Source: Ochrobactrum sp. RH2CCR150 (lineage in GTDB: Bacteria; Pseudomonadota; Alphaproteobacteria; Rhizobiales; Rhizobiaceae). From it: DNA of 64,000 nucleotides. Made by a program: the position numbers and the translations under genes. A model generated the notes under the pieces. It was given only the letters and a program-made list of their open reading frames with translations, had not been told where the DNA came from and searched no databases. Shown piece after piece: positions 43,639-58,919 of the stretch (position 1 is the stretch's first letter; each line of letters begins with the position of its first letter). The stretch is from NCBI GenBank assembly GCA_014138095.1, contig JACGXE010000006.1, forward strand, positions 186,001-250,000. The letters run 5' to 3'.

Positions 43639-45201
43639 ATGAGCACCACGGCACATCCTGACACAATCCTGATCATCGACTTTGGCAGCCAGGTCACGCA
43701 GCTGATTGCGCGACGTGTACGCGAAGCCAATGTCTATTGCGAAATCGTCCCGTTCCAGTCTGCGGAAGAGGCATTCCAGCGGTTGAAGCCGAAAGGCGTC
43801 ATCCTCTCGGGCAGCCCCCATTCGACGACCGACATCGGCTCGCCGCGCGCGCCGCAGGCGGTCTTCGACCAGGGCATTCCGGTTCTTGGCATCTGCTACG
43901 GCGAACAGACCATGTGCGCCCAGCTGGGCGGCAAGGTTGAAAGCGGCCATGACCGCGAATTCGGTCGCGCCTTCCTCGACGTGCAGGAAGACAGCCCGCT
44001 TTTCGCCGGCATCTGGGCCAAGGGCACCCGCCATCAGGTCTGGATGAGCCATGGTGACCGCGTCACCTCGCTTCCTGATGGTTTCACCATCATCGGCACC
44101 TCGCCGAATGCACCTTTCGCGGCCATCGCCGACGAAAAGCGCAAATATTACGGCGTGCAGTTCCATCCGGAAGTCGTGCATACGCCGGATGGCGCGAAGC
44201 TGTTGCAGAATTTCGTTCATCGGATCGTCGGCGTAAAGCCGGGCTGGACGATGGGCGCCTATCGCGAACAGGCCGTCGAGGCAATCCGCAAGCAGGTTGG
44301 CAGCGGCAAGGTTATCTGCGCGCTTTCCGGCGGTGTGGATTCGTCTGTTGCAGCGCTTCTGGCGCATGAAGCCATCGGCGACCAGCTGACCTGCATTCTC
44401 GTCGATCATGGTCTGATGCGCAAAAACGAAGCGCAACAGGTCGTGGAAATGTTCCGCGAACATTATAACCTGCCGCTGATCCTCGTGGACGCAGCCGACC
44501 GTTTCATCGGTGAGCTGGAAGGCGAAAGCGATCCGGAAAAGAAGCGCAAGACGATTGGCCGTCTCTTCATTGAAGTGTTCGAAGAAGAAGCCAAGAAGCT
44601 CGGCGGCGCGGATTTCCTCGTGCAGGGCACGCTTTATCCGGACGTCATCGAAAGCGTTTCCTTTACCGGCGGTCCTTCGGTCACGATCAAGTCGCACCAC
44701 AATGTGGGTGGCCTGCCCGAGCGCATGAAGATGCAGCTCGTCGAGCCGCTGCGCGAATTGTTCAAGGACGAAGTGCGTATGCTCGGCAAGGAACTCGGCC
44801 TGCCGGACAGCTTCATCGGCCGTCACCCGTTCCCGGGTCCGGGCCTTGCCATCCGCTGCCCGGGCGGCATTACCCGCGACAAGCTGGAAATCCTGCGCGA
44901 AGCCGATGCGATCTATCTCGACGAAATCCGCAAGGCTGGCCTCTACGATGCCATCTGGCAGGCTTTCGCCGTTCTGCTGCCGGTTCAGACCGTTGGCGTG
45001 ATGGGCGATGGCCGCACCTACGAATTCGTCTGCGCACTGCGCGCGGTGACCTCGGTCGACGGCATGACGGCTGATTTCTACCACTACGACATGAACTTCC
45101 TTGGCAATGCGGCCACCCGCATCATCAATGAAGTCCGCGGCATCAACCGCGTCGTCTACGACGTGACCTCGAAGCCGCCCGGCACCATTGAGTGGGAATA
45201 A
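43639..45201 (+). CDS. guaA: GMP synthase (glutamine-hydrolysing)
   Basis: 520 residues from the ATG at 43639; the ATG at 43630 is a less likely alternative. The class I amidotransferase half shows [20 protein letters not shown], the nucleophile [15 protein letters not shown] and FHPEV. The synthetase half has the PP-loop [14 protein letters not shown] and ends PPGTIEWE. It aminates XMP to GMP. Its last codons contain the attachment site of the island that follows. By junction logic the uninterrupted gene would end GAATGA, and the present TAA is supplied by the island. Confidence 0.98.
45187..45199 (+). repeat. attL core (direct repeat, left)
   Basis: ATTGAGTGGGAAT within the guaA codons for Ile-Glu-Trp-Glu, identical to 57883-57895. 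The flanking bases differ after the repeat (AATTTGG against GATCCTG). Confidence 0.85.
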
Positions 45202-45508
45202 TTTGGCGTCTGGTAAAGACCAGCACCAAAGAGCATGAAATAGCAGCTAAGCCCGCGTAATTGCGGGCTTTTTTGTTTTTTGGTGCTGCATTGTCTGGCA
45301 CTGTTTAGCACGTCCAAGAAGAAATTTTTCATGGCATGAAAAATGGTATTTCGCAGCCCGATGCCATGCTATCAGCAAAATACCATGACGACCAAATCCC
45401 TGGCATCATGGTATTGAAATTGACTAACACGCTGATATTAAACGAGATAAACGCTCTAATTTGCCGGTTTTCAATCATGGTATTTTCAGAGCGTTGAAAG
45501 GCCGTGTC
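45202..45508. other. Left end of the island, guaA to integrase
   Basis: About 307 bases without a gene. They contain a replacement terminator for guaA (45249-45280) and AT-rich sequence with repeated forms of CATGGTAT/ATACCATG (for example 45338-45350, 45366, 45379 and 45404), probably arm sites or the integrase promoter. Confidence 0.5.
45249..45280 (+). terminator. Terminator downstream of guaA inside the island
   Basis: Stem AAGCCCGC and complement around GTAATT with a long T-run (TTTTTTGTTTTTT). It provides guaA with termination after the insertion separated it from its own terminator. Confidence 0.88.
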
Positions 45509-46708
45509 GTGCTGACCGATACCAAGTTGCGCAACCTGAAACCGCAAGCCTCGCTCTACAAAGTGAATGACCGTGACGGGCTCTATGTTGCTGTAACTCC
45601 TGCGGGTTCAATCTCTTTTCGCTACAACTACGCTATCCACGGACGGCAGGAGACGGTCACTTTCGGGCGCTATGGCGCGAGCGGTATCACGCTGGCCGAG
45701 GCCAGAGAGCGGCTGAACGAAGCGAAGAAACTCATCGCGGCCGGGAAATCTCCGGCCAAAGAGAAAGCGCGAGATAAAGCACGTTTGCGCGGATCTGAGA
45801 GCTTTGCGGAATGGGCCGAGAAATGGCTACGCGGCTATCAGATGGCAGAATCGACGCGTGATATGCGCCGTTCGGTCTTTGAGCGCGATCTTAAGTCCAA
45901 ATTCGGGAGCTGGAAGCTCGCAGAAATTACCCATGAAGACCTACGCAACCATCTCGATGCGATTGTAGAACGGGGAGCACCGGCGACAGCAGTCCACGCC
46001 CGCGAGGTTGTATCTCAGGTGTTCCGGTGGGCTATCGAGCGCGGCCAGAAAGTCGAGAACCCGGCCGATTTGGTTCGCCCAAATAGCATCGCCAAATTTG
46101 AGCCGAGGGACCGCGCACTAACACCGGAAGAGATCGGGCTGATGTACCAGTATCTTGAGCGGGTTGCGACGGGACCATCGTTCCGCGCTGCCGCCAAGCT
46201 TCTGCTGCTGACGATGGTGCGCAAAAGCGAGCTGACCAATGCCAACTGGAGCGAAATCAGCTTCAGTGATGCGCTTTGGACCATTCCCAAAGAACGCATG
46301 AAGCGCCGCAATCCGCATCTGGTTTTCCTTTCGCGGCAAGCGCTGGACATTTTCATTGCGCTTAAGACGTTCGCAGGTGGCTCCGATTACGTCTTGCCAT
46401 CTCGATATGACACTGACGCCCCCATGAGCAGCGCCACGCTAAACCAAGTGCTTACGCTTACCTATAAGGCCGCACAGAAGGACGGAAAGCGGCTAGCAAA
46501 GTTTGGCCCTCACGACCTGCGCCGCACCGCCAGCACGTTGCTGCATGAGGCGGGTTACAACACGGATTGGATTGAAAAGTGTCTTGCTCACGAGCAGCGC
46601 GGCGTTCGTGCCGTTTACAACAAGGCTGAGTATCGGGAGCAGCGCACCGAAATGATGCAGGATTGGGCCGACATGATTGATGAATGGACAAGTAAAAATC
46701 GGAGCTGA
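45509..46708 (+). CDS. P4-type tyrosine recombinase (integrase)
   Basis: 399 residues from the GTG at 45509 (AAAGG seven bases before); TTG starts at 45461 or 45494 are possible. The N-terminal DUF4102 arm-binding domain (LTDTKLRNLKPQASLYKVNDRDGLYVAVTPAGSISFRYNY) is followed by the core-binding domain (about 95-180). The catalytic domain has Arg in MVRKSELTNANW, His-x-x-Arg in PHDLRRTASTLL, His in CLAHEQ and Tyr in RAVYNKAEY. It catalyses integration and excision at the guaA end repeat, to which it is adjacent. Confidence 0.95.
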   Translation: MLTDTKLRNLKPQASLYKVNDRDGLYVAVTPAGSISFRYNYAIHGRQETVTFGRYGASGITLAEARERLNEAKKLIAAGKSPAKEKARDKARLRGSESFAEWAEKWLRGYQMAESTRDMRRSVFERDLKSKFGSWKLAEITHEDLRNHLDAIVERGAPATAVHAREVVSQVFRWAIERGQKVENPADLVRPNSIAKFEPRDRALTPEEIGLMYQYLERVATGPSFRAAAKLLLLTMVRKSELTNANWSEISFSDALWTIPKERMKRRNPHLVFLSRQALDIFIALKTFAGGSDYVLPSRYDTDAPMSSATLNQVLTLTYKAAQKDGKRLAKFGPHDLRRTASTLLHEAGYNTDWIEKCLAHEQRGVRAVYNKAEYREQRTEMMQDWADMIDEWTSKNRS

Positions 46709-46879: not shown

Positions 46880-46906
46880 TGTCCGGAAACTGACGTTTTA
46901 CGGACA
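46880..46906. promoter_or_regulatory. Palindrome TGTCCGnAAAAC, copy 2
   Basis: Arms TGTCCGGAAAC and GTTTTACGGACA around TGAC, flanked by C and G that extend the symmetry. It is related to the copy at 46788-46815 and nearer to the alpA-like gene. Confidence 0.55.
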
Positions 46907-47010
46907 GAAGACATTGAAATAATTAGATAATTTTTGATGAAATGCCTGGCTTGTCCGGGCAGATGCGAGCAATAATCGAACCTCAAATATACGCATACGA
47001 GGTATTCGAA

Positions 47011-47244
47011 ATGAAAAAGGTAAACAGAAACGGAGAAAAGACGCTTATTAATCGCAAGACCCTCCTCGATATAGTACCGCTATCCGACAGAACTATTTAC
47101 AACATGGAGAAGCGCGGAGATTTTCCGCGTAGAATTGCTCTCACAAGCCGTAATGTTGTTTGGGTTTTAAGCGAGGTCGAGCAGTGGATCGAAGCTCGTA
47201 GAAATTCTGGTGCGCAAGCTCCCCGTCCGGGAATGGGAGTGTGA
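47011..47244 (+). CDS. AlpA-like excisionase/regulator
   Basis: 77 residues from the ATG at 47011, which has GAGG upstream. The sequence LINRKTLLDIVPLSDRTIYNMEKRGDFPRRIALTSRNVVWVLSEVEQWIEARR is the AlpA/MerR-like winged helix common in islands with P4-type integrases. It probably acts as a recombination directionality factor or as regulator of excision and replication. It is followed after three bases by the replication initiator, so the two are expressed together. Confidence 0.88.
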   Translation: MKKVNRNGEKTLINRKTLLDIVPLSDRTIYNMEKRGDFPRRIALTSRNVVWVLSEVEQWIEARRNSGAQAPRPGMGV

Positions 47245-47247
47245 TGC

Positions 47248-48363
47248 ATGGCAATCAAGCCCGAAGGGCTTCGCCAGATTGATGCCTCGACTCTAATAGG
47301 CCGAATTGAGAGCGCTCGCCGTGCCAACGCGGCGCGCGGGCAATCCATTTCGCAGGGCGCTGAGGGAGCAGGCCAGCATGAGTTTGATAGTCACGCGACT
47401 ATAAATTCTTCCAACATATCGACCGTTCATGAGCAGATGGCGCGGCTTAAAGAGCGTGACAAGGCGCTCTCTCTTGTTCGAAACGCACCAAAAGGTGACG
47501 ATCAGGCTGACTTTTTTGTGCCTGGCTTATTTGATGTTGGCGGACGCGATAATCGTTCAATTATGGACGTAGCGCCATTTCGCCTTTCAAAGCGCGATAA
47601 GCGTGCAGGGGAGGTTATCCGCCATGAATTGCCAGACGGCTATGTTGAAGTAAAATCTGGTCCCGACGGAATGGCGTCCGTATGGGATTACGACATCGTT
47701 TTGATGACAATTTCTCATCTCACCGAAGCCGTGAACCGCTGGCGCGACTGTAAGGGTGAAAAGCCTTCCCGCACCTTCACGCCGCACGTTTCCGACATTC
47801 TGAAATTTGCCAGAAGGGGCGACGGAAGCCGTCAGGTTGAGGAACTGGAGGCCGCGTTAGACAGGCTTAAAGGGACTACCATCAAAACCGTTCGTGACCG
47901 TCAAACCAGTGACGGAAAAACTATGCGGGAGGTTGAAGCCGAAGGACTTATCAGCAGCTATCGGGTTGTGTCCCGGACGGACACTAAGAAGCTTAGTATC
48001 GTTGAGATCGAAGCTCCTAAGTGGATCTATCGCGAGATTGTAGAGGGTAAAAGCCCAGACGTGCTAACCGTTCACCCCGATTATTTTCTGATAGATCCGG
48101 GCATAGGCCGGTTCTTGTACAGGTTGGCTCGGCGGGCCGCAGGAAGGCGAAATGCTAAGTGGTCGTTCCGCACGCTATATGCGCGCAGTGGCAGCACCGG
48201 TAAGTTTAAGGATTTTTCTCGTCATCTCCGAAAAGTGATAGCTGCCAATGATTTACCTGAGTATCTCCTTCGTGAGGAGCCGGGGAAAAGCGGACCACAG
48301 GTCGTAATGATTTATCGTGAAATGCCCGACACCCAGCCGCCAAGCAGGAACGAGGGTGGTTAA
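47248..48363 (+). CDS. Plasmid replication initiator protein (RepA/RPA family)
   Basis: 371 residues. After a variable N terminus, the block from about 105 on (IMDVAPFRLSKRDKRAGEVIRHELPDGYVEVKSGPDGMASVWDYDIVLMTISHL) matches the replication initiator protein A family found on broad-host-range plasmids. A winged-helix part follows (FARRGDGSRQVEELEAALDRLKGTTIKTV) and then GRFLYRLARRAAGRRNAKWSFRTLYARSGSTGKFKDFSRHLRKV. It binds iterons; four direct copies lie 110-190 bases downstream, and one inverted copy overlaps its own stop codon. A replicase inside an integrated element suggests replication after excision. Confidence 0.88.
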   Translation: MAIKPEGLRQIDASTLIGRIESARRANAARGQSISQGAEGAGQHEFDSHATINSSNISTVHEQMARLKERDKALSLVRNAPKGDDQADFFVPGLFDVGGRDNRSIMDVAPFRLSKRDKRAGEVIRHELPDGYVEVKSGPDGMASVWDYDIVLMTISHLTEAVNRWRDCKGEKPSRTFTPHVSDILKFARRGDGSRQVEELEAALDRLKGTTIKTVRDRQTSDGKTMREVEAEGLISSYRVVSRTDTKKLSIVEIEAPKWIYREIVEGKSPDVLTVHPDYFLIDPGIGRFLYRLARRAAGRRNAKWSFRTLYARSGSTGKFKDFSRHLRKVIAANDLPEYLLREEPGKSGPQVVMIYREMPDTQPPSRNEGG

Positions 48364-48370
48364 TAGACGG
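48355..48370 (-). repeat. Inverted iteron overlapping the rep stop codon
   Basis: GGTGGTTAATAGACGG, the exact complement of the iteron CCGTCTATTAACCACC; the rep stop TAA is inside it. Confidence 0.8.
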
Positions 48371-48406
48371 AAGATAACTGCGATTGATGTTCAGGTAGAG
48401 TTGATG

Positions 48407-48427
48407 ACGGTCCTTCGGGGCCGTTTT
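48407..48427 (+). terminator. Terminator after the replication initiator
   Basis: ACGGTCC and GGGCCGT pair around a TTCG tetraloop, followed by TTTT. A UUCG loop makes this a stable terminator. Confidence 0.75.
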
Positions 48428-48476
48428 GCATTTGGAAAAGATTATCAGTTTAAGTGGAGAGCGGTCTGTGGATAGT

Positions 48477-48556
48477 CCGTCTATTAACCACCCTGCCTCC
48501 GTCTATTAACCACCGAAACCCGTCTATTAGCCACCCGATGCCGTCTATTAACCACC
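48477..48556 (+). repeat. Iteron array (four direct repeats)
   Basis: Four copies of CCGTCTATTAACCACC at 48477, 48499, 48520 (with G for A at base 11) and 48541, spaced 22, 21 and 21 bases, close to two helical turns. Together with the flanking initiator gene this is a typical iteron origin. Confidence 0.92.
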
Positions 48557-48667
48557 GGCCTCTCTCGTAACCAATTGTATATAAATGGTAATTAGGCGAT
48601 TATTTCGCCTAAATCTTTTAAAACTAATTAAAACTTATATTCTTAAAACCCGCTTGCATGTGGATAA
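48477..48667. other. Candidate vegetative replication origin (oriV) of the element
   Basis: From left to right: the iteron array, an AT-rich stretch of about 90 bases with a small hairpin (TTAGGCGA arms, 48592-48612), and a perfect DnaA box (TTATCCACA on the minus strand, 48659-48667). This is the standard layout of iteron plasmids. The whole gap 48364-48790 contains no other gene. Confidence 0.82.
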
Positions 48668-48790
48668 GTCGTAGGCGCTAGACGCCGCATGGTTACTGGT
48701 TTATTCGGCCGCAACCTTTTTATGCGGTCTTATGTGACCGTGATATTGTCGAGAGATCCATCGTGGCACGGCCTCTTCAAGAGAGTACAA

Positions 48791-49315: not shown

Positions 49316-49467
49316 AGCGATAAGCCGCAAGCCTAGGAGAAGGCCTTACGTGAAGAAATCAGCTATGTTGGCAGGAGAATGGCAAGCTCCACGTTTAGGC
49401 GGTGACGTCGTGGAGATGATCATATTCCTTAGTTGACGCAAATAAGTTGGCACCAAAGGAAAAGCAG

Positions 49468-49746
49468 GTGAAGCAGATCAGGACGATGACAGCGCTTGAG
49501 CAGGCTTTCGAGCGGAACGACAACAGCGAAGCATTAAGGCTTCTCAGTGAAGGATATCCAATCGTCTACAGGGAGCCAGAAACGCCCGCAGGTCATGTTA
49601 TTCAGCGCTACCCAGACGGGAGACGCGAACTGGTGAGCTACGAAAGCGGCAAGCCGGTTGTAGTGGCCGAACTATCGCCCGATTCCCCGGAGCTTAAACC
49701 CGCGAAATACGATCCCAGAGACCTGATAAGCTGCGATGACGATTAA
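49468..49746 (+). CDS. Small hypothetical protein of the island
   Basis: 92 residues from the GTG at 49468, with AAAGGA in front. Acidic C terminus (KYDPRDLISCDDD) and a stretch HVIQRYPDGRRELVSYESGKPVVV that looks like two beta strands. No known motif. Alternative starts are TTG 49447 and ATG 49486. Related small proteins are common beside plasmid maintenance genes, but no function can be given. Confidence 0.5.
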   Translation: MKQIRTMTALEQAFERNDNSEALRLLSEGYPIVYREPETPAGHVIQRYPDGRRELVSYESGKPVVVAELSPDSPELKPAKYDPRDLISCDDD

Positions 49747-49848
49747 AGCGCCTGAGAGCTACGGAGAGCCGTTTTCAGGTCTAAGGCATGCGTTGGGTCG
49801 GGTGAGGACAGAAAAACCGCTTTGGAGCCGTACAGGCGCGAATTTGGC

Positions 49849-49864
49849 CCGTCTATTACCCACC
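49849..49864 (+). repeat. Outlying variant iteron, plus orientation
   Basis: CCGTCTATTACCCACC, one base different from the origin iterons, about 1.3 kb away from the main array. Confidence 0.75.
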
Positions 49865-49990
49865 GACACATTCAGGGATGACGCAGAGGCTTAACCGGAA
49901 ACCCAAAAAACGCGTTTTTTCGCTTAAACGCAATGTGTTATCCGGGGACGGCCAAAACCCCGCGAGACCGCGCCACAGGCGGCGTGAGGC

Positions 49991-50006
49991 GGTGGGTAAT
50001 AGACGG
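49991..50006 (-). repeat. Outlying variant iteron, minus orientation
   Basis: GGTGGGTAATAGACGG, the exact complement of the 49849 copy and facing it across 126 bases. Confidence 0.75.
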
Positions 50007-50023
50007 TATCGCTAATTTCAGGC

Positions 50024-50048
50024 ACAAAAAACCCCGCGTGTGGCGGGG
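50024..50048 (-). terminator. Terminator of the trb operon
   Basis: Minus-strand stem CCCCGC and GCGGGG with a short loop, followed by a run of six T. It lies 18 bases after the stop of the last minus-strand gene of the trb unit. Confidence 0.78.
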
Positions 50049-50065
50049 TAGGTTCACGGAATACG

Positions 50066-50374
50066 TTATTCTGCACCATTACCGCGACGATAAGCGGCCT
50101 GCATTTTCTCCGCCATTTTCGTATGAGCTGCGGTAGCGCTTTTGCTTCCGATAAGTGGAGCGCGGGTTAGAGTTGACGCACCACCGAGAAGTGACATTCC
50201 TATCCCAAAGCGAACAGCGTTGATCTTGTGTTCATTGGCTTCGAGATAGGCGTTTACCCTGTCCAGTTGGGGACCATATCCTGCTTTTAGCAAGACCAAA
50301 CGCAAGCCCACCATACCGAAAACGAAAGCGATGCTGACTGCGGTAAAGATTGAAAATTTGATAATTGGGTCCAT
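50066..50374 (-). CDS. Small membrane protein downstream of trbL
   Basis: 102 residues with one or two hydrophobic segments (IIKFSIFTAVSIAFVFGMVGLRLVLL near the N terminus and FGIGMSLLGGAST in the middle). No family recognised; the place after trbL suggests an accessory transfer or entry-exclusion role. It begins 47 bases after the trbL stop and ends at the operon terminator. Confidence 0.6.
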   Translation of the reverse strand: MDPIIKFSIFTAVSIAFVFGMVGLRLVLLKAGYGPQLDRVNAYLEANEHKINAVRFGIGMSLLGGASTLTRAPLIGSKSATAAHTKMAEKMQAAYRRGNGAE

Positions 50375-50421
50375 GGTCTGTCTCCTAGGTCGTTAGATGC
50401 ACGGCTCGATGGCCGTATTGC

Positions 50422-51780
50422 TTATTTCTCTGGTTCCGGTTTTTCAGGATGAATAATGTTGCTGTTCTCACTTGCTGGGTCATTGCCGGTTTCTTCCTGC
50501 TCAGACGTGTCCTCAAAGCCGTTAGACGGCGCGGATGAAATGTTTCCAACCGAAGACGCGCTTTCCATGCCCGGGACGCTTAGAGCGACCATAGAACCAG
50601 CGGTTTTCATTGCAGCTCCAGCCAGCTTCCGTCCTTTCTCGCCGGATTGGCCGGATGTATTCGGAGCATTGGAAGGCGAGCCGCTTGAACGTGCCGGACT
50701 GCCACCGCCTCCGGTCATAGTCGAGGCTGGACTTGTGTCGGCATCGCTCTGAGGGGGGTGCGGAGCATTACCAGCAAGACTGGAGCCAAGACTTTTGGCT
50801 AGACTGCTAATACCGCCACCGGCCGAACTTGCGGCACCGCCTGCGAGCGCGCCTGCCCCTACGGCGAGGCCAGCAGCACCGGCTGCACCCGCCATTGCAA
50901 GCCCGCCGATTGCAGAGCCGCCGCCTAGTGATGTTCCGTTTATCATTCCAGCGATCAATTCCGGTATCGTCTTGGTCAGATAAGCGCAGATGATCGCCAG
51001 TCCCGCAATTGTCAGGGAGGATGCAGAATCCTGCGTGTAGGCCTCGACCCAAGCGTCGGCGCTGGCCGAGATCACAGAAACTATCAGCGTCAGAACAAAC
51101 AGCTTTGCACCAACAGAGACGATGTATTTAAGCGGTGAAGTAGCAAACTCACGTGTCCAGGATGAGCCGCCGAAACCCATCAGAAAAACGCCTGCACAGA
51201 TGATGATGTAGGATTCAACGAGCGTTACAAACATGAATGCCGCTATGAACGTGAAGCACAGGAGCACGATAACGGACATGAAGGAGTTGAAAACGGCCGT
51301 ACCCGGAGACAGGGTGAAAATGCCATCAGCCACGGTATTAGACAGCGTTACGGCGATTGCCAACACGTCGCCGGGATAGAGCATTTTGCCCATCCCTCCC
51401 GCACGCCCTGCCGCTTCTCGGAAGCTATCGACCATCAGTCCGCCCCAACTTGGAAGGTACGTTATCATCATGGAGAAAAACGATGTGACCATGATTAAAC
51501 GTAGAAGGTCGGCGATAACGCTGCCAAGCTCCAGATTGCTATCAAGCGCCTTTAATCCAAAGGTCCAGACCAGCTGGATGAGAGCGAGACTGAAAAGCAA
51601 ATAGGTGGCATACTTGCCAAGTTCTCCAGTCCAGCTATTCGCCGTTTCGTGTAAGAGGTTGAGGAGCGAACTCGCTTCGGCGCTAGGGTCAGCCAATCCA
51701 CTACCTTCTGCTGCAAAAGTGACCGTGCTCAACAGAAGTAAAGGCAGGATGAGAACAATCCAAAATGCGTTCTTCGTCAT
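50422..51780 (-). CDS. trbL: Conjugative transfer protein TrbL (VirB6-like)
   Basis: 452 residues. A signal-like first helix precedes five or more membrane helices (about 60-310), then a Gly/Ala-rich stretch (about 320-345, AGAAGAAGLAVGAGALAGGAAS) and a hydrophilic Ser/Pro-rich tail. The segment SGLADPSAEASSLLNLLHETANSWTGELGKYATYLLFSLALIQLVWTFGLKAL fits TrbL. It forms part of the inner-membrane channel of type IV secretion. Only trbJ, a trbK-like gene and trbL are present here, so the channel is incomplete. Confidence 0.85.
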   Translation of the reverse strand: MTKNAFWIVLILPLLLLSTVTFAAEGSGLADPSAEASSLLNLLHETANSWTGELGKYATYLLFSLALIQLVWTFGLKALDSNLELGSVIADLLRLIMVTSFFSMMITYLPSWGGLMVDSFREAAGRAGGMGKMLYPGDVLAIAVTLSNTVADGIFTLSPGTAVFNSFMSVIVLLCFTFIAAFMFVTLVESYIIICAGVFLMGFGGSSWTREFATSPLKYIVSVGAKLFVLTLIVSVISASADAWVEAYTQDSASSLTIAGLAIICAYLTKTIPELIAGMINGTSLGGGSAIGGLAMAGAAGAAGLAVGAGALAGGAASSAGGGISSLAKSLGSSLAGNAPHPPQSDADTSPASTMTGGGGSPARSSGSPSNAPNTSGQSGEKGRKLAGAAMKTAGSMVALSVPGMESASSVGNISSAPSNGFEDTSEQEETGNDPASENSNIIHPEKPEPEK

Positions 51781-51782
51781 AA

Positions 51783-51962
51783 TTAAAACCCTCGTTTAGG
51801 GCTGCGAATAGGTTCGCGAGAGAAGAATTCTTGGTCTGCTTTGGTGTCATTCATCGAAGCATCACAGGTTGCGACGCTCGCGCCTGAAATGACCGCTATC
51901 GCTCCACCCAAAAGGGCCGACGAGAGACACAGCAGTAAAAGAAATACCTTTGGAATAGTCAT
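51783..51962 (-). CDS. TrbK-like small exported protein (entry-exclusion candidate)
   Basis: A 59-residue open frame starting MTIPKVFLLLLCLSSALLGG, two bases after the trbJ stop and two before the trbL start. It has one hydrophobic leader/anchor and a cysteine pair context VATCDASMND; no canonical lipobox is present. In trb operons the gene between trbJ and trbL is trbK, the entry-exclusion protein, so position and size give the assignment. Sequence similarity cannot be judged by eye. Confidence 0.6.
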   Translation of the reverse strand: MTIPKVFLLLLCLSSALLGGAIAVISGASVATCDASMNDTKADQEFFSREPIRSPKRGF

Positions 51963-51964
51963 AG

Positions 51965-52735
51965 TCAGAACCCTACTTTTTCACTTCGTACAGGCTTCCG
52001 ATCAAAATACTGCTCATCGGCTGCCGCCTTGGCAGTTTCCTTTTCCGTTGTCGCTGCGAGGTAGTTGCTTTGCAGCGTGATTTGCGTTGCGGTCAGATCT
52101 CGCAGCTTCTGGAGCTGTTGGACGTTCTGCGCTGCAATCTCGTTCCCCGCTTGAATGGCTTGCAGCCGTCCGGTGGCGTTCTGCGATTGCTGCACAACGC
52201 GATTGAGTGCACGATCTTCCTGCTCAAACGCGCCCACGTTCATTCCTGCTGCCCGCATGGCAGAAGTCGCATTTTCGAAGCCCTGCTCAGACCATTTGCG
52301 CTGGCGTTCGCTGATGTTGCCGCCGTCAAACTCACCGGCCGATTTCAGATAGGCGTCGTAATCCTTGAATTGTTCACGGAAGCGCTTGTCCAAATCGCTG
52401 ATGTCGCGACCCAAGGTTTTCGTATTGGTGTAAACATCTGCTACGCGTCGAAGGTCGCCAGTGATGGACTGATAAAGGCTTTCAGGCAGCGCAATGCCCT
52501 GCTTAATCATGTCGTCGTACTGGCGCATTTGAGTTTGCAGTTGCTGCGCGGTGTTCAGCGCCGTCTCAACATCTTTCGCGTATTGCAGCGCCTGCTGCAT
52601 GGTAGTTGAGCAGTTGGTGCAATAGACCGTGAATGCTTCTGCTTCCGGGGCGTAAAAAGCAGTAACTGGAATAAGAGTGGCAGTCAGCGAAACAGAGAAT
52701 GCAGCGCCTGCTAAAAATCGAAGTGATGTTTTCAT
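51965..52735 (-). CDS. trbJ: Conjugative transfer protein TrbJ
   Basis: 256 residues with a signal peptide and the mature start FTVYCTNCSTTMQQALQYAKDVETALNTAQQLQTQMRQYDDMIKQ, typical of TrbJ/VirB5. It is helical with long coiled-coil stretches (about 40-100 and 180-240). It is a periplasmic or pilus-tip component of the mating channel. First gene of the short trb unit. Confidence 0.88.
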   Translation of the reverse strand: MKTSLRFLAGAAFSVSLTATLIPVTAFYAPEAEAFTVYCTNCSTTMQQALQYAKDVETALNTAQQLQTQMRQYDDMIKQGIALPESLYQSITGDLRRVADVYTNTKTLGRDISDLDKRFREQFKDYDAYLKSAGEFDGGNISERQRKWSEQGFENATSAMRAAGMNVGAFEQEDRALNRVVQQSQNATGRLQAIQAGNEIAAQNVQQLQKLRDLTATQITLQSNYLAATTEKETAKAAADEQYFDRKPVRSEKVGF

Positions 52736-52775
52736 TTTGTTCTCCTGAGTATTGGGCCTGTCACTTGAGGCCGGG

Positions 52776-53045
52776 TCATAATGTTTTGGATTTTTCCTGA
52801 CGCACGCGGCTCAGGTAAGTGCTCAGCTTGGCGGGCGTCATCTGGACGCCCCGTTTTGCGAGAATCTCGGTGATGGCTTTCAGGGGAAATCCCTTCGCCT
52901 GCAAGGATGATATTTCATCCTGCAACTCACGAATGACGTCCATCTGGCTCATCCATTGCGGGCCGGGTGTTGCATCCGCCGCTTCCCTGAGTTGGACTCT
53001 CAAACCCTCGATCACTTTGTTAGTGATACGCGGGGATATGCTCAT
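52776..53045 (-). CDS. TraK-like relaxosome accessory protein (tentative)
   Basis: 89 residues. The region DVIRELQDEISSLQAKGFPLKAITEILAKRGVQMTPAKLSTYLSRVRQEK has the length, helical pattern and final basic residues of the short DNA-binding proteins encoded beside oriT, such as TraK of RP4. It is divergent from traJ with oriT between, exactly as in RP4. The decamer array in front of it is the likely binding site. Sequence similarity is weak, so the name rests mostly on position. Confidence 0.55.
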   Translation of the reverse strand: MSISPRITNKVIEGLRVQLREAADATPGPQWMSQMDVIRELQDEISSLQAKGFPLKAITEILAKRGVQMTPAKLSTYLSRVRQEKSKTL

Positions 53046-53200
53046 ATAAACTCACTCCTCGTAGATATGAATGTTATCAAAAATCATGAAATAATCTTAC
53101 AGAATTGAATATAAAAATCGACTTGTGTGGCGTAAAGTTATGTAAATCCAAATATTGGATTGTGCAATCCAATATAATTTTCTTTTTTCAAAATATTAAT

Positions 53201-53290
53201 TACGCGATTATTTGCGATTAAATGCAATTATCCGCGATGATGCGCGATTTGATGCGATCATATGCAACGATGCGCGAATAAATGCGATTT
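53201..53290. repeat. Nine decamers in exact 10-bp phase within oriT
   Basis: Nine consecutive 10-base units, each with GCGAT, GCAAT, GCGAA or GCAAC at positions 4-8, with no slip in phase over 90 bases. The spacing puts every core on the same DNA face. The place corresponds to the bent TraK-binding region of RP4 oriT. Confidence 0.85.
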
Positions 53291-53369
53291 AACGGTTTTT
53301 CGGTACTAAAAATGGAAAGTCGGTTGCGCATCGCGTAAAATCGCACGCAGAATGATGGCAAGATGTGTA

Positions 53370-53383
53370 TTGTACCGGTACAA
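53370..53383. repeat. Palindrome next to the predicted nick site
   Basis: TTGTACCGGTACAA, a perfect 14-base palindrome starting five bases from the CATCTTG motif; the probable TraJ target. Confidence 0.6.
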
Positions 53384-53500
53384 GCTGCGCCTTTCCCTGT
53401 CCAATACCGTGCCTTACTCGCCTGCGGCTCGACGGAATCTTGCTCTGCGAGGCTGGCAGTCGCTACCGCACAATGACAAATCTGACAATTTGGAGGCTCT

Positions 53501-53887
53501 ATGAAGAATGTGGCTGACCCTGAACAGGCACCGGTCGGAGCTAGAGGTGGCCGCCCGCGTAACCGGCGCATTGAGGTTTGGTTGACACCAAACGAGGAAG
53601 CGAAATTGGCGGAAAGAGCCAATGTAACCGGACATTCGCGCTCGGCATACCTTCGCAATGTTGGCCTTAACCACCCGATACGATCCGTAGTCGATTTGAA
53701 GGCTGTCGCAGACCTAGCCAAAGTGAATGGAGACTTGGGCCGCGTCGCGGGCCTGCTCAAGCTCTGGTTGGCCGAGAAGCGCGGACAGGGAGCGAGGTCA
53801 ATAGAAGTCGAAACGATGATGCAAGATTTTCGGAAGCTCCAAGAACAAGTTCATCAGATTATGGGGCAAATCGTTCGCGAAAAATAA
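53501..53887 (+). CDS. traJ: TraJ-like relaxosome protein
   Basis: 128 residues with RGGRPRNRRIEVWLTPNEEAKLAERANVTGHSRSAYLRNVGL, a ribbon-helix-helix-like DNA-binding start, and the TraJ hallmark VNGDLGRVAGLLKLWL, close to INGDLGRLGGLLKLWL of RP4. It binds oriT and recruits the relaxase. GGAGG precedes the ATG. In RP4 traI follows directly; here no relaxase gene is found after it. Confidence 0.9.
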   Translation: MKNVADPEQAPVGARGGRPRNRRIEVWLTPNEEAKLAERANVTGHSRSAYLRNVGLNHPIRSVVDLKAVADLAKVNGDLGRVAGLLKLWLAEKRGQGARSIEVETMMQDFRKLQEQVHQIMGQIVREK

Positions 53888-53893
53888 AATGCG

Positions 53894-54181
53894 ATGAACG
53901 CATTCACTATACAAGCTGAGCATAGAACTTGGGGACGGTACCGCGATCTGGGGCAGGATCACGACGAAGGTCTTACTATACGGTTAGCAAACTCAAAAAG
54001 CGCGAAAGCGGCGGAAGATGTGAGTTGGAAAACTTGTGAGTGCACGACGATTGCCAATGAAGTGTCTGCGGTTTACAAGTACCATTGGGCCAGCAGGCGT
54101 TTGCTTGAGTTCAACCGCGCGCAGCCTCTGTGTGTCGTGCTAGGAGAATGCGGCGTTGATGTTTGGTTAACCAGGCGTTGA
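53894..54181 (+). CDS. Hypothetical protein after traJ
   Basis: 95 residues, starting seven bases after the traJ stop but with no good ribosome-binding site. No family is recognised, and neither a relaxase tyrosine motif nor a His-x-His motif is visible. It occupies the place of the relaxase gene and may be a remnant or a spurious frame. Confidence 0.35.
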   Translation: MNAFTIQAEHRTWGRYRDLGQDHDEGLTIRLANSKSAKAAEDVSWKTCECTTIANEVSAVYKYHWASRRLLEFNRAQPLCVVLGECGVDVWLTRR

Positions 54182-54210
54182 TAATTTCAAGCTGAGCGAG
54201 GCTAAAGCAA

Positions 54211-55251
54211 ATGGCGCGTAGTGATCTCTTGTTGTCTATTGTCCGTGCGGGAGCGGAAGGCGACCAGACCACGTTGCGTGCGTCCGTTGAAGCGCTTGTT
54301 GCCGACGAGAAAGCCAAAAATCATAATGTACTTGCAGACCGTCTAGAGCGCGTGCTGAATTCGGTTGCGGTATCAAGCCGCCTTGAGCAGAAGCAGCTAT
54401 CCGCTCCCGGTCGAGAAATCGTCATCGAAACTAACCCGCAGCGTCAGTTGTCAGAGCTAATCCTTCCCCTGCCGGTGACAGCGCAAGTTCGTAATCTTAT
54501 TGAAGAGCAGTCACGGGCTGACTTGTTAAGAGCCCATGGCGTTCAGCCGCGTCACAAGCTTCTTCTCTCTGGGCCTCCAGGTAACGGTAAGACATCTGTG
54601 GCGGAAGCAATAGCTGAGGCGCTAGCGCTGCCTTTGTTTACTGTTCGTTATGATGCCCTGGTGGGTTCTTTTCTAGGTGAAACGAATACGCGGCTTCGTA
54701 AGCTATTCGATTACGTTAGAACCAACGCCTGTGTGCTCTTTTTTGATGAGTTTGATGCTATTGGTAAGGAGAGGGGAGACACCCACGAGACAGGAGAGAT
54801 CAAGCGTGTTGTATCTTTTCTGCTCATGCAGATAGATCAGCTTCCTAGCTACGTAGTCGCTGTCGCAGCAACCAATCACCATGAGCTATTGGACCGTGCT
54901 GTATGGCGTAGATTTCAGATGCGGCTAAATGTGCCGCAACCTGATTGGCGGCAGGTGGCCGTTTTGTTATCGCGATACTTCGATGCATGGGACGAAAATA
55001 TAGCGTTATCGCCAGAGAGCCTAGCCAAGCAACTAGAGCCCGTGAGTTTCGCGGAGGCGGTTGAGTTTTGTCAAACCATTAGGCGCAGGCAGATACTTTC
55101 TTTGGGGGCGCTGTCCATGGAGCAAATAATTAGGGAGGAGCTTCGGCATTGGTCGGAGCAAGTGGGGGACGTTAGTGCAAGCCGATCTGACAAAGCCGAT
55201 ATTGAAACTCGACGAGGCGCAGCCAAGCGCAAGGCAACCGGGGCACGGTAA
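54211..55251 (+). CDS. AAA+ ATPase paired with a subtilisin-like protease
   Basis: 346 residues. After a helical N-terminal region (about 1-95) a classical AAA domain follows: Walker A LLLSGPPGNGKTSVAEAI (near 120-130), Walker B ACVLFFDEFDAIGKER, sensor 1 VAVAATNHHELLDRA and the arginine-finger region AVWRRFQMRL. It looks like a single-domain, ring-forming AAA protein of the spastin/katanin type. It overlaps the following protease gene by about 77 bases, which indicates coupled translation. Such ATPase/S8 protease pairs are found on mobile elements and are suspected defence or maintenance systems. Confidence 0.9.
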   Translation: MARSDLLLSIVRAGAEGDQTTLRASVEALVADEKAKNHNVLADRLERVLNSVAVSSRLEQKQLSAPGREIVIETNPQRQLSELILPLPVTAQVRNLIEEQSRADLLRAHGVQPRHKLLLSGPPGNGKTSVAEAIAEALALPLFTVRYDALVGSFLGETNTRLRKLFDYVRTNACVLFFDEFDAIGKERGDTHETGEIKRVVSFLLMQIDQLPSYVVAVAATNHHELLDRAVWRRFQMRLNVPQPDWRQVAVLLSRYFDAWDENIALSPESLAKQLEPVSFAEAVEFCQTIRRRQILSLGALSMEQIIREELRHWSEQVGDVSASRSDKADIETRRGAAKRKATGAR

Positions 55252-57712
55252 CGCCACGCCGTCGCGTGTGATTGAACGAGACGTTCAAGGTCAAAGACTC
55301 GGACCGAAGCTCCAGCGTCTTCAAGATTTCTTGGCGGCTGGACCTCAAGCAGTGCAAAATCAAGCCGACGGGTTGGCGCCAGAGCGTCTCCTCGTGTTCG
55401 AGGTTACGGGATCAGTAACGGACTTCGCGAAAGCCGTAAGCAAGGTAGAAGGCTTAGCTTTTGCGGGCGAGGATTTGCTCGATCCTGATGAGTTGGACGA
55501 CGATCCACAAGTCTACCTGCTGGTGCCTAACCTCGCTGCGTTGAGACAAATAGTAAATCTTTGGCAAAACTGGCAGAGGGGTGTTGATTTACCCCATGGT
55601 TTTGCCCCGTGGAAACATCTCTTTTCTCGCCTGCGCGACATTCGTCCGTGGGGACCGCGTGACCGTGTGCGCCCCATGGATCAATCTCTTTTGCTGGATG
55701 CTGTAGGAGCTATCGAGCCCGGAGCGATGCTTCGTCTAGAATGTGAATTGGTTTACCGTGCTTCGGCCGGTACGGCTCAGGCTGCTCGTAATGCCGTCGC
55801 AATTGCGGTGGAGAGTGCAGGCGGACAGGTTGTCAGTTCTGCGAGGCATGAGGCGTTTTCATACGACGCTCTATTGATAGACATGCCTCGTGAAGAGGTT
55901 GTCAAGATCGCAGAGCTGCGCGACGACACCTTAGCCGGACTAGATCCGATAATGTCGATCATGCCGCAGAGCATGAGCACGACTGTCGAAGAAGGGGAGA
56001 CGGAAACAATTGGAGTGCCGGATGCCCACACTCCGTTTGAAGAGCCGATAGCTGCGATTTTCGACGCGGTGCCTCTGTCATCGCATCCTTGGCTAGCTGA
56101 TTGGCTCACCGTATCAGATCCTCACAATCTTGAGGTACTTTCGGTTGGCCCTCGTGTTCATGGTACAGCCATGGCTTCGATAGTTGTGCATGGGGATAAG
56201 AATGATGCCTCGACGCCTATTGGTCACAAGCTATATTTTAGGAATGTCATGTATGCGCCTCCTCCGGGTCCGTTCGGACCAATGCAGGAGCGATTTCAGG
56301 ATAACCGCCTAATTATCGACTTAATGGTAGAGGCCGTTTTGACAATGCGGCAGGAGGGGTTTGCGAACGTCGTTATCGTAAATCTATCACTGGGTGATGC
56401 AAATAAGCAGTATAGCGATCGGATGTCGGCTTGGGCGCGAGCGATAGACTATCTCTCATATCAGTATGGAGTGCTGTTTATAGTATCCGGCGGAAATGTT
56501 GCTTCTCCATTGATGCTTAGTGCTTACGTCCATCCGGATGATTTTCATGCTGCGGATGATATTGGAAAAAAATCTGCAATCTTGAATGCGATTGATGCGG
56601 TGAAGGCCGATAGACGCATCCTCGCTCCGGCTGAAAGCATTAATGCACTAACCGTAGGGGCTTGGCACGAAGATGGTCTCGCTGCGCTGCCGCTACCCCA
56701 TGGGAGATACCATGCCTTTCCTAATTGTAGCATGCCGAACGTCTCATCGGCATTAGGGCATGGCCATAAGGGTGCGATTAAGCCTGACATCCTTCTGCCG
56801 GGAGGACGAGAGCATCTTATTCTCTCCCCCGGGTCTCCTCCAGCCTCTGTTCGCCCACAAGGACAGGGAACTCGTTTCGGAGGCATCCGCGTAGCAGCAC
56901 CTCCCGTACCGGGCCAGCCGCAGGACCTGTCTGCCTGGATTTTGGGCTCTAGTCCAGCAGCTGCCTACGCAAGCCATACCGCGCACCACGTTTATGAGAC
57001 GCTTGAGCGAGAGTACGGCGTTCTGTTTACTGGTCTTCCAAACCAGCAAAAAGCCACGCTCTTGAAGGCTCTTGTAGCTCATCCCGCATCCTGGCAAGGC
57101 GCAGACGAGTTCATCACTGCAACTAAGTTCCCTCTTCCCGCAAGTTGGGACCAGATGCGTCGAGAAGTCGCTCGTCATGTCGGATACGGTTTCGTATCCC
57201 CTGCAGATGCTATGAGCTGCGCTTCAGATCGGGCGACGCTTTGGGCTGCTGGCCGTTTGCTGCCTAAGCAGGCAATTTTGTTTAGCGTGCCGGTGCCAGA
57301 CGATTTTAGTAGGACTGCTGATGTTAGAGCCGTAAAGGCCACCCTAGCTTGGCTGTCACCAACTCGGCCGGGGCATCAGGCTTATAGGGCATCCAAGCTG
57401 CGCATTATACCTTTATCAGACAATACTAAAAACGCACTCGGTGTGGCGCCCATAGTTGAACCCCCTTGGACGCAGACCGAAGCGGGAACGCTAATTCACC
57501 GCCAGTGGTCAGGGCAGGCATTCGGTCATTTGGCAGCGGGTGGCACGCTATCCATTCAAGTCCAGAGGGAAAAGGATCAGGGGCCGCCTCTTGATGACGC
57601 CATTCCATTTGGGCTCGTGATCTCTGTCGTGATGAACAACAATGCTAGCATCTATGATGAGGTCTTGGCTCGGGTCGCTGTGAAACCTCGGAGCCGTATT
57701 GCGGTTTCTTAA
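55175..57712 (+). CDS. Subtilisin-like serine protease (S8 family) with long N-terminal region
   Basis: 845 residues from the GTG at 55175. There is no signal peptide, so it is probably cytoplasmic. A region of about 290 residues comes first. The S8 triad then follows: Asp in AAIFDAVPLSSHPWL, His in GPRVHGTAMASIVVHG, oxyanion Asn in LFIVSGGN, and Ser in GSSPAAAYASHTAHH. An approximately 190-residue C-terminal part follows (from YETLEREYGVLFTGL on). The triad appears intact. It overlaps the AAA ATPase gene. A protease held in check by an ATPase would fit a toxin-like or abortive defence role (inference). Confidence 0.9.
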   Translation: MQADLTKPILKLDEAQPSARQPGHGNATPSRVIERDVQGQRLGPKLQRLQDFLAAGPQAVQNQADGLAPERLLVFEVTGSVTDFAKAVSKVEGLAFAGEDLLDPDELDDDPQVYLLVPNLAALRQIVNLWQNWQRGVDLPHGFAPWKHLFSRLRDIRPWGPRDRVRPMDQSLLLDAVGAIEPGAMLRLECELVYRASAGTAQAARNAVAIAVESAGGQVVSSARHEAFSYDALLIDMPREEVVKIAELRDDTLAGLDPIMSIMPQSMSTTVEEGETETIGVPDAHTPFEEPIAAIFDAVPLSSHPWLADWLTVSDPHNLEVLSVGPRVHGTAMASIVVHGDKNDASTPIGHKLYFRNVMYAPPPGPFGPMQERFQDNRLIIDLMVEAVLTMRQEGFANVVIVNLSLGDANKQYSDRMSAWARAIDYLSYQYGVLFIVSGGNVASPLMLSAYVHPDDFHAADDIGKKSAILNAIDAVKADRRILAPAESINALTVGAWHEDGLAALPLPHGRYHAFPNCSMPNVSSALGHGHKGAIKPDILLPGGREHLILSPGSPPASVRPQGQGTRFGGIRVAAPPVPGQPQDLSAWILGSSPAAAYASHTAHHVYETLEREYGVLFTGLPNQQKATLLKALVAHPASWQGADEFITATKFPLPASWDQMRREVARHVGYGFVSPADAMSCASDRATLWAAGRLLPKQAILFSVPVPDDFSRTADVRAVKATLAWLSPTRPGHQAYRASKLRIIPLSDNTKNALGVAPIVEPPWTQTEAGTLIHRQWSGQAFGHLAAGGTLSIQVQREKDQGPPLDDAIPFGLVISVVMNNNASIYDEVLARVAVKPRSRIAVS

Positions 57713-57882
57713 GGCGCTCTTCGCTGTGGCGCCTTGTTCATCTCTCCCACTTAGTTTCGCGCCACTCTCAGTTCGGGTCCCTTACGCGGTGCGATTTGCC
57801 TGTTCTGGTATTTTGAATGGAATTCATCGACAACATTGTGTCTAACTAAATGAAATAAAGAGGAAATTTATATCAATCGATA

Positions 57883-57895
57883 ATTGAGTGGGAAT
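57883..57895 (+). repeat. attR core (direct repeat, right)
   Basis: ATTGAGTGGGAAT, identical to the copy at the guaA end. The next bases GATCC restore a stop codon (GAATGA) if guaA is joined here. Confidence 0.85.
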
Positions 57896-57910: not shown

Positions 57911-57955
57911 CAAAACAAAACCGCCGGAGTTCAAAACTCCGGCGGTTTTGTTTTG
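57911..57955. terminator. Strong bidirectional terminator, probably the original guaA terminator
   Basis: A 20-base perfect stem (CAAAACAAAACCGCCGGAGT and complement) with loop TCAAA and T-runs on both strands. It lies 16 bases after the attR repeat, the distance expected for a guaA terminator before integration. It also serves the convergent minus-strand gene. Confidence 0.85.
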
Positions 57956-57974: not shown

Positions 57975-58919
57975 TCAGGGGTATTGCGCGCCGGTTACGG
58001 TGAGATACACCGCGTAAAGCGACTTCGTGGCGGCGATGAACAGGCGGTTGCGACGCGGACCGCCGAAGGTCAGATTAGCGACCGTCTGCGGCGTCTTGAT
58101 CTTGCCGAGAAGCGTGCCTTCCGGCGAGAAGCAATGCACGCCATCGCCCGCGCTGGTCCACAGATTGCCATCCGTATCGAAGCGGAAGCCGTCCGGCAGG
58201 CCCTTGTCGATGGTGCAGAACACACTGCCGCCCGACAGGCGCTTGCCACCATCCACAACGTCGAAGACGCGGATATGGCGCGGCGCATTCTCGTCGTGGC
58301 TATAGGCACTGTCGGCAACATAGAGCTTGGTTTCGTCCGGCGAAAAGGCCAGTCCGTTCGGCTGGTGGAAGTCGGTGACGACGGCATCGATTTCACCGGT
58401 CTTCGGGTCGAGACGATAGACATTCCGCGATGGCTGTTCCGGGTCTGCCTTGTAGCCTTCATAATCCGCCAGGATGCCGTAGGTAGGGTCGGTGAACCAC
58501 ACGGTTCCATCCGAGCGCACGATGACATCGTTTGGCGCATTCAGCTTTTTGCCCTGATAGCTGTCGACCAACACGGTGATGCTGCCATCATGCTCCGTGC
58601 GGGTGACGCGACGGCCGCCATGCTCGCAGGTGACGAGACGCCCTTCGCGGTCACGCGTATTGCCATTGGAGAAATTGGACGGGTTGCGGAAAACGGAAAC
58701 ACCGCCGCCAACTTCGCCTTCAATTTCGCTTCCCGGCACCCAGCGCAGGATGCGCTGGTTCGGGATATCGCTCCACAGAAGGCAGTTCAGGTCGTTGAAC
58801 CAGACCGGACCTTCCGCCCAGCGGCAGCCGTTGTAAAGTTCGTCCAGATCGGCGCTCGGCACGATCATCTGCTTGAAACGTTCGTCGTGGATTTCGTAGA
58901 TCGAAACAGTCTGAGACAA
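57975..58919 (-). CDS. SMP-30/gluconolactonase/LRE family protein
   Basis: 314 residues. Beta-propeller motifs of the family are visible: LYNGCRWAEGPVWFNDLNCLLWSDIPNQRILRW with the metal-binding Glu, LNAPNDVIVRSDGTVWFTDPTYGI and QPNGLAFSPDETKLYVADSA. These enzymes hydrolyse sugar lactones with a divalent metal. It follows the ABC permease genes by about 20 bases on the same strand, so it probably acts on a sugar lactone related to the imported sugar. Confidence 0.88.
   Translation of the reverse strand: MSQTVSIYEIHDERFKQMIVPSADLDELYNGCRWAEGPVWFNDLNCLLWSDIPNQRILRWVPGSEIEGEVGGGVSVFRNPSNFSNGNTRDREGRLVTCEHGGRRVTRTEHDGSITVLVDSYQGKKLNAPNDVIVRSDGTVWFTDPTYGILADYEGYKADPEQPSRNVYRLDPKTGEIDAVVTDFHQPNGLAFSPDETKLYVADSAYSHDENAPRHIRVFDVVDGGKRLSGGSVFCTIDKGLPDGFRFDTDGNLWTSAGDGVHCFSPEGTLLGKIKTPQTVANLTFGGPRRNRLFIAATKSLYAVYLTVTGAQYP

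What the first reader, a model, noticed from the sequence alone, without database searches (positions are those of the whole stretch)
54211..57712. AAA ATPase and subtilisin-like protease pair as candidate defence cargo
Two overlapping genes encode a single-domain AAA ATPase with intact Walker A, Walker B and sensor motifs, and an 845-residue S8 protease with a complete Asp-His-Ser triad but no signal peptide. They are the only non-plasmid cargo of the island and sit where the relaxase gene would normally be. A cytoplasmic subtilisin controlled by a coupled ATPase is unusual. A role in phage defence, plasmid exclusion or island maintenance is inferred from location and pairing, not shown by sequence.
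Basis: partly seen in the sequence, partly recalled or inferred. Interest (0 to 1): 0.78.

Follow-up and report, generated by a model that had tools for sequence, protein, structure and literature searches.

The report
IetAS protease-ATPase module on mobile island
The ATPase and protease genes are a known paired system (IetAS) that can kill or protect the cell, carried here as exchangeable cargo at the end of a small mobile DNA island whose closest relatives carry other antiviral-type genes in the same place.

Summary
Observation confirmed. The genes at 54211-55251 and 55175-57712 are a full-length IetA/IetS pair (PADLOC 487.8 and 849.7 bits), a family already described as toxin-antitoxin and anti-phage system. 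Active-site residues are conserved, and ietS follows ietA in 76 of 80 fetched loci.

The host island (45187-57895) sits at the 3' end of guaA between 13-bp repeats. Its genes (integrase, AlpA, RPA, TrbL, TrbJ, TraJ; no relaxase found) fit the known IncP-island/GIsul2 kind of mobilizable element.

New here: two sister islands in the genus are 92-93% identical to the window in backbone DNA, and identity stops at the end of traJ. There the window carries IetAS, one sister Hachiman, the other an M78-peptidase/Beta-protein pair; a more distant island carries a restriction-modification pair. So traJ-attR is an exchangeable slot, defence-type in 4 of 4 islands with TraJ at least 66% identical, though a related guaA island without TraJ carries arsenic-type cargo. 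Most likely IetA restrains a self-directed protease that is released when the element is lost or phage replication is sensed. New member of a known kind.

The parts
45187..45199 (+). attL core ATTGAGTGGGAAT at the 3' end of guaA
   Evidence: exact repeat with 57883-57895; contains GAGTGGGA, the published GIsul2 integration core
45461..46708 (+). tyrosine integrase
   Evidence: PF00589 4.4e-22, PF13356 4.3e-20
46942..47244 (+). AlpA-type regulator/excisionase candidate
   Evidence: PF05930 6.2e-13
47248..48363 (+). plasmid-type replication initiator RPA
   Evidence: PF10134 7.6e-65
48353..48561 (.). iteron-like 21-nt repeats (four direct copies 48477-48561, inverted copy 48353-48371)
50422..51780 (-). 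TrbL (VirB6-type mating-pore subunit)
   Evidence: TIGR02783 234.1 bits, cut-off 128.85
51783..51962 (-). 59-aa ORF in the trbK (entry exclusion) position
   Evidence: position only; no Pfam match
51965..52735 (-). TrbJ (VirB5-type subunit)
   Evidence: TIGR02780 211.2 bits, cut-off 100.55
52776..53045 (-). 89-aa ORF in the traK position
   Evidence: position (IncP gene order recalled) and 96-100% identity in sister islands; no family match
53046..53500 (.). A+T-rich intergenic stretch with 10-bp repeats, candidate oriT
   Evidence: position between the traK-like ORF and traJ; repeats; no nic-type motif found inside it
53501..53887 (+). TraJ/NikA-type relaxosome protein
   Evidence: PF21983 69.2 bits; NF010451 94.8 bits, below its cut-off of 134
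53894..54181 (+). 95-aa ORF of unknown meaning, may not be a gene
   Evidence: no PADLOC or Pfam match; no match in sister islands
54211..55251 (+). ietA, AAA ATPase
   Evidence: PADLOC IetA 487.8 bits, profile 1-323 of 330
55175..57712 (+). ietS, S8 (subtilisin-like) protease
   Evidence: PADLOC IetS 849.7 bits, profile 3-850 of 855
57883..57895 (+). attR core ATTGAGTGGGAAT
   Evidence: the sequence to its right continues like the guaA downstream region of relatives without the island

Best explanation
The pair is an IetAS module carried in the exchangeable end of a small integrative mobilizable element of the IncP-island/GIsul2 kind. The two genes are translated as one overlapping unit. IetA, a FtsH/p97-like AAA protein, holds the cytoplasmic protease IetS in check; IetS, which has its own propeptide-like domain before the catalytic domain, becomes active against host proteins when IetA's control fails: when daughter cells lose the excised, replicating element, or when a phage replication component disturbs the pair. 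The result is death or growth arrest that keeps the island in the population and blocks phage. Shown here: family identity, pairing, conserved catalytic residues, predicted folds, island boundaries, cargo difference between sister islands. Published for homologues, not shown here: toxin and antitoxin roles, element maintenance, phage trigger. Inferred: that IetA acts by restraining or remodelling IetS, the propeptide reading, and that both benefits apply to this copy.
For: PADLOC matches end to end. ietS follows ietA on the same strand in 76 of 80 loci; the ORFs overlap in 63 of 75 measured pairs, median 74 nt (starts set mechanically). Catalytic and Walker residues conserved. IetS model pLDDT 87.3, pTM 0.90; best PDB match the pro-form ProN-Tk-SP, E 9e-21, and an unautoprocessed pro-subtilisin E is among the matches; the predicted strand/helix order at 185-264 is beta-alpha-beta-beta-alpha-beta, as in subtilisin propeptides (recalled). 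IetA model (pLDDT 80.5, pTM 0.66) matches proteasomal ATPases, p97 and FtsH. Papers, passages seen: SGI1 S026-S025, similar to the pTiC58 pair, act as AAA antitoxin and subtilisin toxin in E. coli (PMC5006074); deletion of sgiAT makes SGI1 unstable once its helper induces excision (PMC5704250); phage core replication components activate ietAS (PMC10732053). RPA and iterons suggest a replicating excised form. Sister islands carry other defence-type genes in the same slot.
Against: The window pair is far below NCBIfam's cut-offs for the phage-named branch (IteA 231.4 of 510; IteS 60 of 900) and six of the eight IetS profiles matched do so only weakly (25-87 bits), so phage activity of this branch is not given. 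The SGI1 pair gave no post-segregational killing from its own promoter, and its promoter was not SOS-induced in Salmonella. Excision of this island was not tested. Foldseek gave no aligned ranges and no complex was modelled. Flanking genes of ietAS loci at large show only few mobility or defence families.
Confidence: 0.68

Rival explanations
1. The pair is primarily an anti-phage abortive-infection system picked up as host-beneficial cargo; element maintenance is secondary or absent. (Overlaps with the best explanation; the confidences are not exclusive.)
For: In sister islands the same slot holds Hachiman (HamA 351.1, HamB 628.0 bits) or an M78/Beta-protein pair; in a more distant island a restriction-modification pair. 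Phage replication components activate ietAS (one passage). Cargo that differs while the backbone stays at about 89-94% DNA identity among the three islands fits selection on variety of defence.
Against: The window branch lies away from the phage-named NCBIfam branch. Restriction systems and toxin-antitoxin pairs also serve maintenance, so the slot pattern does not separate the two.
Confidence: 0.45
2. The pair serves mainly element maintenance and incompatibility: a toxin-antitoxin addiction module that acts when the excised, RPA-replicated island or a competing plasmid disturbs the balance.
For: SGI1, a helper-dependent island with its own mating-pore genes, carries the homologous sgiAT, needed for its stability once excised. 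85 plasmid records match IetS. The window island likewise has replication and mating-pore genes.
Against: Two sister islands with the same backbone show no ietAS match, so it is not required for the element; Hachiman is not known to me as an addiction module (recalled).
Confidence: 0.4
3. A housekeeping protein-quality protease (FtsH/Lon-like two-part machine) with no conflict role.
For: IetA fold matches FtsH and proteasomal ATPases.
Against: Patchy: IetS in 17 of 247 sampled family genomes at E<=0.001, 12 of them at E<=1e-40, own included; IetA in 4 of 35 genus genomes at E<=1e-30, three of them only 34-35% identical; mobile location; published toxicity of a homologue.
Confidence: 0.05

Closest known systems
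IetAS of plasmid pTiC58 (Yamamoto et al. 2009; known here only through PMC5006074, the paper itself is not held)
   Same: AAA ATPase antitoxin plus subtilisin-like toxin on a mobile element; the window proteins match PADLOC's IetA and IetS profiles over nearly their full length
   Different: Here on a 12.7-kb integrated island, not a large plasmid; the sequences were not compared directly
SgiAT of Salmonella genomic island 1
   Same: Pair of the same kind on a helper-dependent integrated island that also carries mating-pore genes and a replication gene (passages)
   Different: Different integration gene, helper plasmid family and backbone; no direct sequence comparison was made
IncP island and GIsul2 (integrative mobilizable elements at guaA)
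   Same: guaA 3' end, tyrosine integrase, plasmid replication gene, trbJ-trbL; AlpA and the GAGTGGGA core for GIsul2; RepA and 12.7 kb for the Brucella suis island in the review's tables (passages)
   Different: IncP islands as reviewed carry a MobP relaxase, none was found here; GIsul2 as reviewed lacks relaxosome proteins and carries RepA/RepC and resistance cargo. Cargo here is IetAS
Defence island #13 at guaA in Stenotrophomonas maltophilia (PMC11680222)
   Same: guaA neighbourhood used for variable defence systems (passage)
   Different: Unrelated host; whether its elements share this backbone was not tested

Membership tests
IetAS | full-length match to IetA and IetS profiles | tested here: met
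   487.8 and 849.7 bits, nearly whole profiles
IetAS | adjacent genes, ATPase first | tested here: met
   window; 76 of 80 loci
IetAS | intact ATPase and protease active sites | tested here: met
NCBIfam IteA/IteS anti-phage equivalogs (narrow branch) | score above the curated cut-off | tested here: not met
   231.4 of 510 and 60 of 900 bits
Toxin-antitoxin system | protease toxic alone, neutralised by the partner | not testable with these tools
   published for the SGI1 pair (passages)
Anti-phage system | protects against phage | not testable with these tools
   literature on other members only
IncP-island/GIsul2-type mobilizable element | insertion at guaA 3' end with GAGTGGGA core repeat | tested here: met
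IncP-island/GIsul2-type mobilizable element | integrase, replication gene, TrbJ and TrbL | tested here: met
IncP-island/GIsul2-type mobilizable element | MobP relaxase (IncP island only) | tested here: not met
   six-frame search of the own genome with PF03432 found two matches, both on other contigs; no relaxase among the island ORFs scanned with Pfam. Other relaxase families were not sought genome-wide
IncP-island/GIsul2-type mobilizable element | excision and helper-dependent transfer | not testable with these tools
   excision and integration by the GIsul2 integrase are in print (abstract and passages)

The most novel reading that the evidence does not exclude
The traJ-to-attR segment of these relaxase-less guaA elements is a dedicated exchange cassette in which the relaxase was replaced by interchangeable defence modules. 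Together with the retained TrbJ/TrbK-like/TrbL genes, the IetAS copy would make the island both a hitchhiker and an antagonist of IncP/Ti-type plasmids: it remodels the helper's mating pore, and the IetAS switch punishes cells in which a helper or rival displaces the island.
Probability: 0.15. Interest if true: 0.65.

Novelty: new member of a known kind. Interest (0 to 1): 0.36.

Why it matters
It puts a name and a testable mechanism on the pair, and it gives a natural experiment: one small mobile backbone, about 89-94% identical in DNA among three islands, with three different cargo modules at one boundary. That shows how defence systems may be exchanged on minimal helper-dependent islands and offers a way to find others by reading what lies between traJ and attR at guaA.

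Tried and rejected
Genuinely new pairing: rejected, PADLOC and literature name it. Secreted protease: disfavoured, no N-terminal hydrophobic stretch seen by eye and the partner is an AAA ATPase. Relaxase remnant between traJ and ietA: none found by PF03432 in six frames, and the 95-aa ORF matches nothing in PADLOC or Pfam. Third att core inside the island as a cargo-swap mark, as in GIsul2: not found; GAGTGGGA occurs in the island only at its two ends. RP4-type nic motif (recalled) in the candidate oriT: not found there; the motif is common in the window (33 matches, 17 expected). Viral-contig scans: TrbL gave no relative; RPA gave 10 loci not pursued. A helper with a similar TrbL in the same genome: not found, the island TrbL is the only match at E<=1e-20; one VirB4-type gene lies on another contig. 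Solved structure of IetS by sequence: none at E<=0.01. Plasmid RPA matches (4 of 1054 records opened): no island of the same layout seen, not pursued.

Limits: few islands compared; cargo ORFs are mechanical. The integrase search of 394 family genomes gave 51 with E<=1e-120, of which five (own included) are at least 83% identical; only these and the genus members were looked at. Left out of the 4-of-4 slot count, with reasons: L263 (integrase 85%, no TraJ match; SBF-family transporter, FMN reductase and transposon genes, which I read as arsenic-type cargo), L264 (under 4 kb beyond the integrase), L153 (contig ends), L156/L265 (TraJ 34%, other layout; PifA-like gene 388.8 bits between integrase and traJ), L235/L237/L238 (similar viral-collection contigs, TraJ and TrbL about 33%; in L235 an LmuA-like gene, 78.4 bits, near the end of the stretch), L195 (TraJ 48%, relaxase follows). 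L164 is counted although its contig ends before attR.
Full report
What is there. Two overlapping + strand genes lie at 54211-55251 (346 aa) and 55175-57712 (845 aa). Against PADLOC the first matches IetA with 487.8 bits over profile positions 1-323 of 330 and the second IetS with 849.7 bits over 3-850 of 855. Pfam gives AAA (108.2 bits) and Peptidase_S8 (57.3 bits). The pair is therefore IetAS. In NCBIfam the best matches are the anti-phage models IteA and IteS, but at 231.4 of 510 and 60 of 900 bits, far below the curated cut-offs, so this is another branch of the family than the one NCBI names.

Pairing and conservation. In 76 of these 80, ietS lies directly downstream on the same strand; of the other four, two have only 113 and 235 bases left in the locus, one 2166 and one 5242 bases without a match. 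ORFs overlap in 63 of 75 measured pairs, with mechanical starts. In alignments of 77 IetA and 76 IetS sequences (window included) the Walker, sensor and arginine residues tested are identical in 77 of 77; Asp297, His329, Asn441 and Ser593 are kept in 75, 74, 73 and 71 of 76. In the plasmid collection 85 of 72,556 records match IetS, 59 over at least 80% of it, all below 60% identity. In the family 17 of 247 sampled genomes match IetS at E<=0.001, 12 of them at E<=1e-40, own included.

Structure. IetS folded from 37 sequences has mean pLDDT 87.3 and pTM 0.90; the best PDB match is the pro-form of a Thermococcus subtilisin, and an unautoprocessed pro-subtilisin E is among the 50 shown. Elements 185-264 run beta-alpha-beta-beta-alpha-beta just before the catalytic domain, the order of subtilisin propeptides (recalled). 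IetA (29 sequences, pLDDT 80.5, pTM 0.66) resembles proteasomal ATPases, p97 and FtsH. No complex was modelled.

The island. The sequence ATTGAGTGGGAAT occurs twice in the window, at the end of guaA (45187) and at 57883, 12,696 bp apart. In relatives L137, L138, L141 and, with a different sequence further on, L142, the DNA after guaA continues much as the window does after the second repeat; a homologue of the window's next gene (57975-58919) lies within about 130 bp behind guaA in 4 of 33 relatives. The core GAGTGGGA is that published for GIsul2 (PMC9376610, abstract and passages). Inside lie an integrase, AlpA, RPA replication protein with iteron-like repeats, TrbL, a 59-aa ORF in the trbK position, TrbJ, an 89-aa ORF in the traK position and TraJ. 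The IME review PMC5704250 (passages) describes the same kind: IncP island (guaA, RepA, TrbJ, TrbL, TraJ, TraK, with MobP relaxase; 12.7 kb in Brucella suis) and GIsul2 (guaA, RepA/RepC, TrbJKL, no relaxase). The two PF03432 relaxase matches of this genome are on other contigs.

The cargo slot. I fetched DNA downstream of guaA from 33 of the 34 other genus members held (the one left out had no full guaA match; four stretches are under 4 kb). An integrase or fragment matching the window's lies there in 12 of 33. Two, L154 and L164, share the whole backbone: 93.3% and 93.2% DNA identity in two blocks (L154) and 92.3% (L164) with the window, ending at window 53865 and 53876, inside the last codons of traJ. 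L154 and L164 are 93.6% identical over their main block, 89.4% over the left 1.5 kb, and also part near the end of traJ. L154 has, besides the slot, two extra genes between integrase and AlpA. Beyond traJ: window, IetAS; L154, HamA (351.1 bits) and HamB (628.0 bits), i.e. Hachiman, ending about 120 bp before its right att core; L164, an M78 peptidase (75.9 bits) and a Beta protein (114.8 bits; weaker PADLOC match to PD-Lambda-2_C, 59.7) on the other strand before the contig ends, the third ORF there matching nothing. An island from another genus, L194 (integrase 87%, TraJ 66%, TrbL 38%), has an Mrr-type nuclease (Pfam 36.9 bits, no PADLOC match) and a type II methyltransferase (400.2 bits) in that place, followed by an att core. 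In L195 traJ overlaps a relaxase gene. So 4 of 4 islands with TraJ at least 66% identical carry defence-type genes there. Against a strict rule: L263, with an 85% integrase but no TraJ match, carries what I read as arsenic-type cargo, and published relatives carry resistance genes. A control scan of 10 chromosomal window proteins gave partial PADLOC matches for 2 of 10 at E<=1e-20 (calls of ABC-transporter kind and one other) and no full-length system gene.

Wider context. Of 133 ORFs flanking 34 ietAS loci (up to four per locus, cut at 50,000 residues; 39 loci qualified), 3 match phage integrase, 2 an ISL3 transposase and 2 an integrase core at E<=1e-5 (25 of 138 families shown); among the 25 of 126 PADLOC families shown at E<=1e-20 are pAgo (2 members), GajA and GajB (1 each) and type IIG restriction (1). 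This is some, not strong, evidence for mobile or defence settings at large.

Function. Passages read: the SGI1 pair works as subtilisin toxin and AAA antitoxin in E. coli, without post-segregational killing from its own promoter (PMC5006074); sgiAT keeps SGI1 when a helper induces excision (PMC5704250); ietAS is listed among systems activated by phage core replication components (PMC10732053); two studies call its mechanism unknown (PMC11878078; PMC9958689). From these and the anatomy I take a restrained cytoplasmic protease with a dual maintenance and defence pay-off as most likely. In PMC11680222 the guaA neighbourhood is the most diverse defence island of Stenotrophomonas maltophilia (passage), so guaA as a defence site is not new.

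Host. From recall of GuaA and of the IncP island I suspect Brucella/Ochrobactrum; this was not tested. PMC11076708 (passages) says that the IncP island is present in several Brucella species.

Novelty search. This backbone with defence cargo was looked for (a broad, noisy search; listings), with passages, and was not seen; this is a small search of open-licence papers.

Noticed in passing
45252-45280 and 57911-57955: By eye, the island's left end brings its own hairpin and T-run directly behind guaA, while the inverted repeat that follows guaA in relatives without the island is displaced to the right of attR; it looks like a carried replacement terminator.
   Followed up: partly
L154:15143-15713: Right of the Hachiman island, an att core is followed by sequence like the island's left end and a truncated second integrase, suggesting a tandem or decayed neighbour element.
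   Followed up: partly
48353-48561, 49849-49869, 49985-50011: 21-nt iteron-like repeats near the RPA gene in both orientations, as in an iteron-controlled plasmid origin.
   Followed up: no
L140, L144, L148, L152 (guaA downstream): Four other genus members carry at guaA an integrase only 57-61% identical; in the three with long stretches the following genes look different from this island's, so the site seems shared by several element kinds.
   Followed up: no
L235:19674-20903: An element with a related integrase (81%) in the viral collection has an ABC-3C/LmuA-like gene (PF20276 147.9 bits) near the end of the stretch, another defence-type cargo.
   Followed up: partly
47248-48363 and plasmid records: The RPA protein is up to 71% identical to replication proteins of Burkholderia and Pseudomonas plasmids; one record (L180) lists an EexN lipoprotein and a type IV secretion protein on the same 10.9-kb plasmid and no relaxase.
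   Followed up: no
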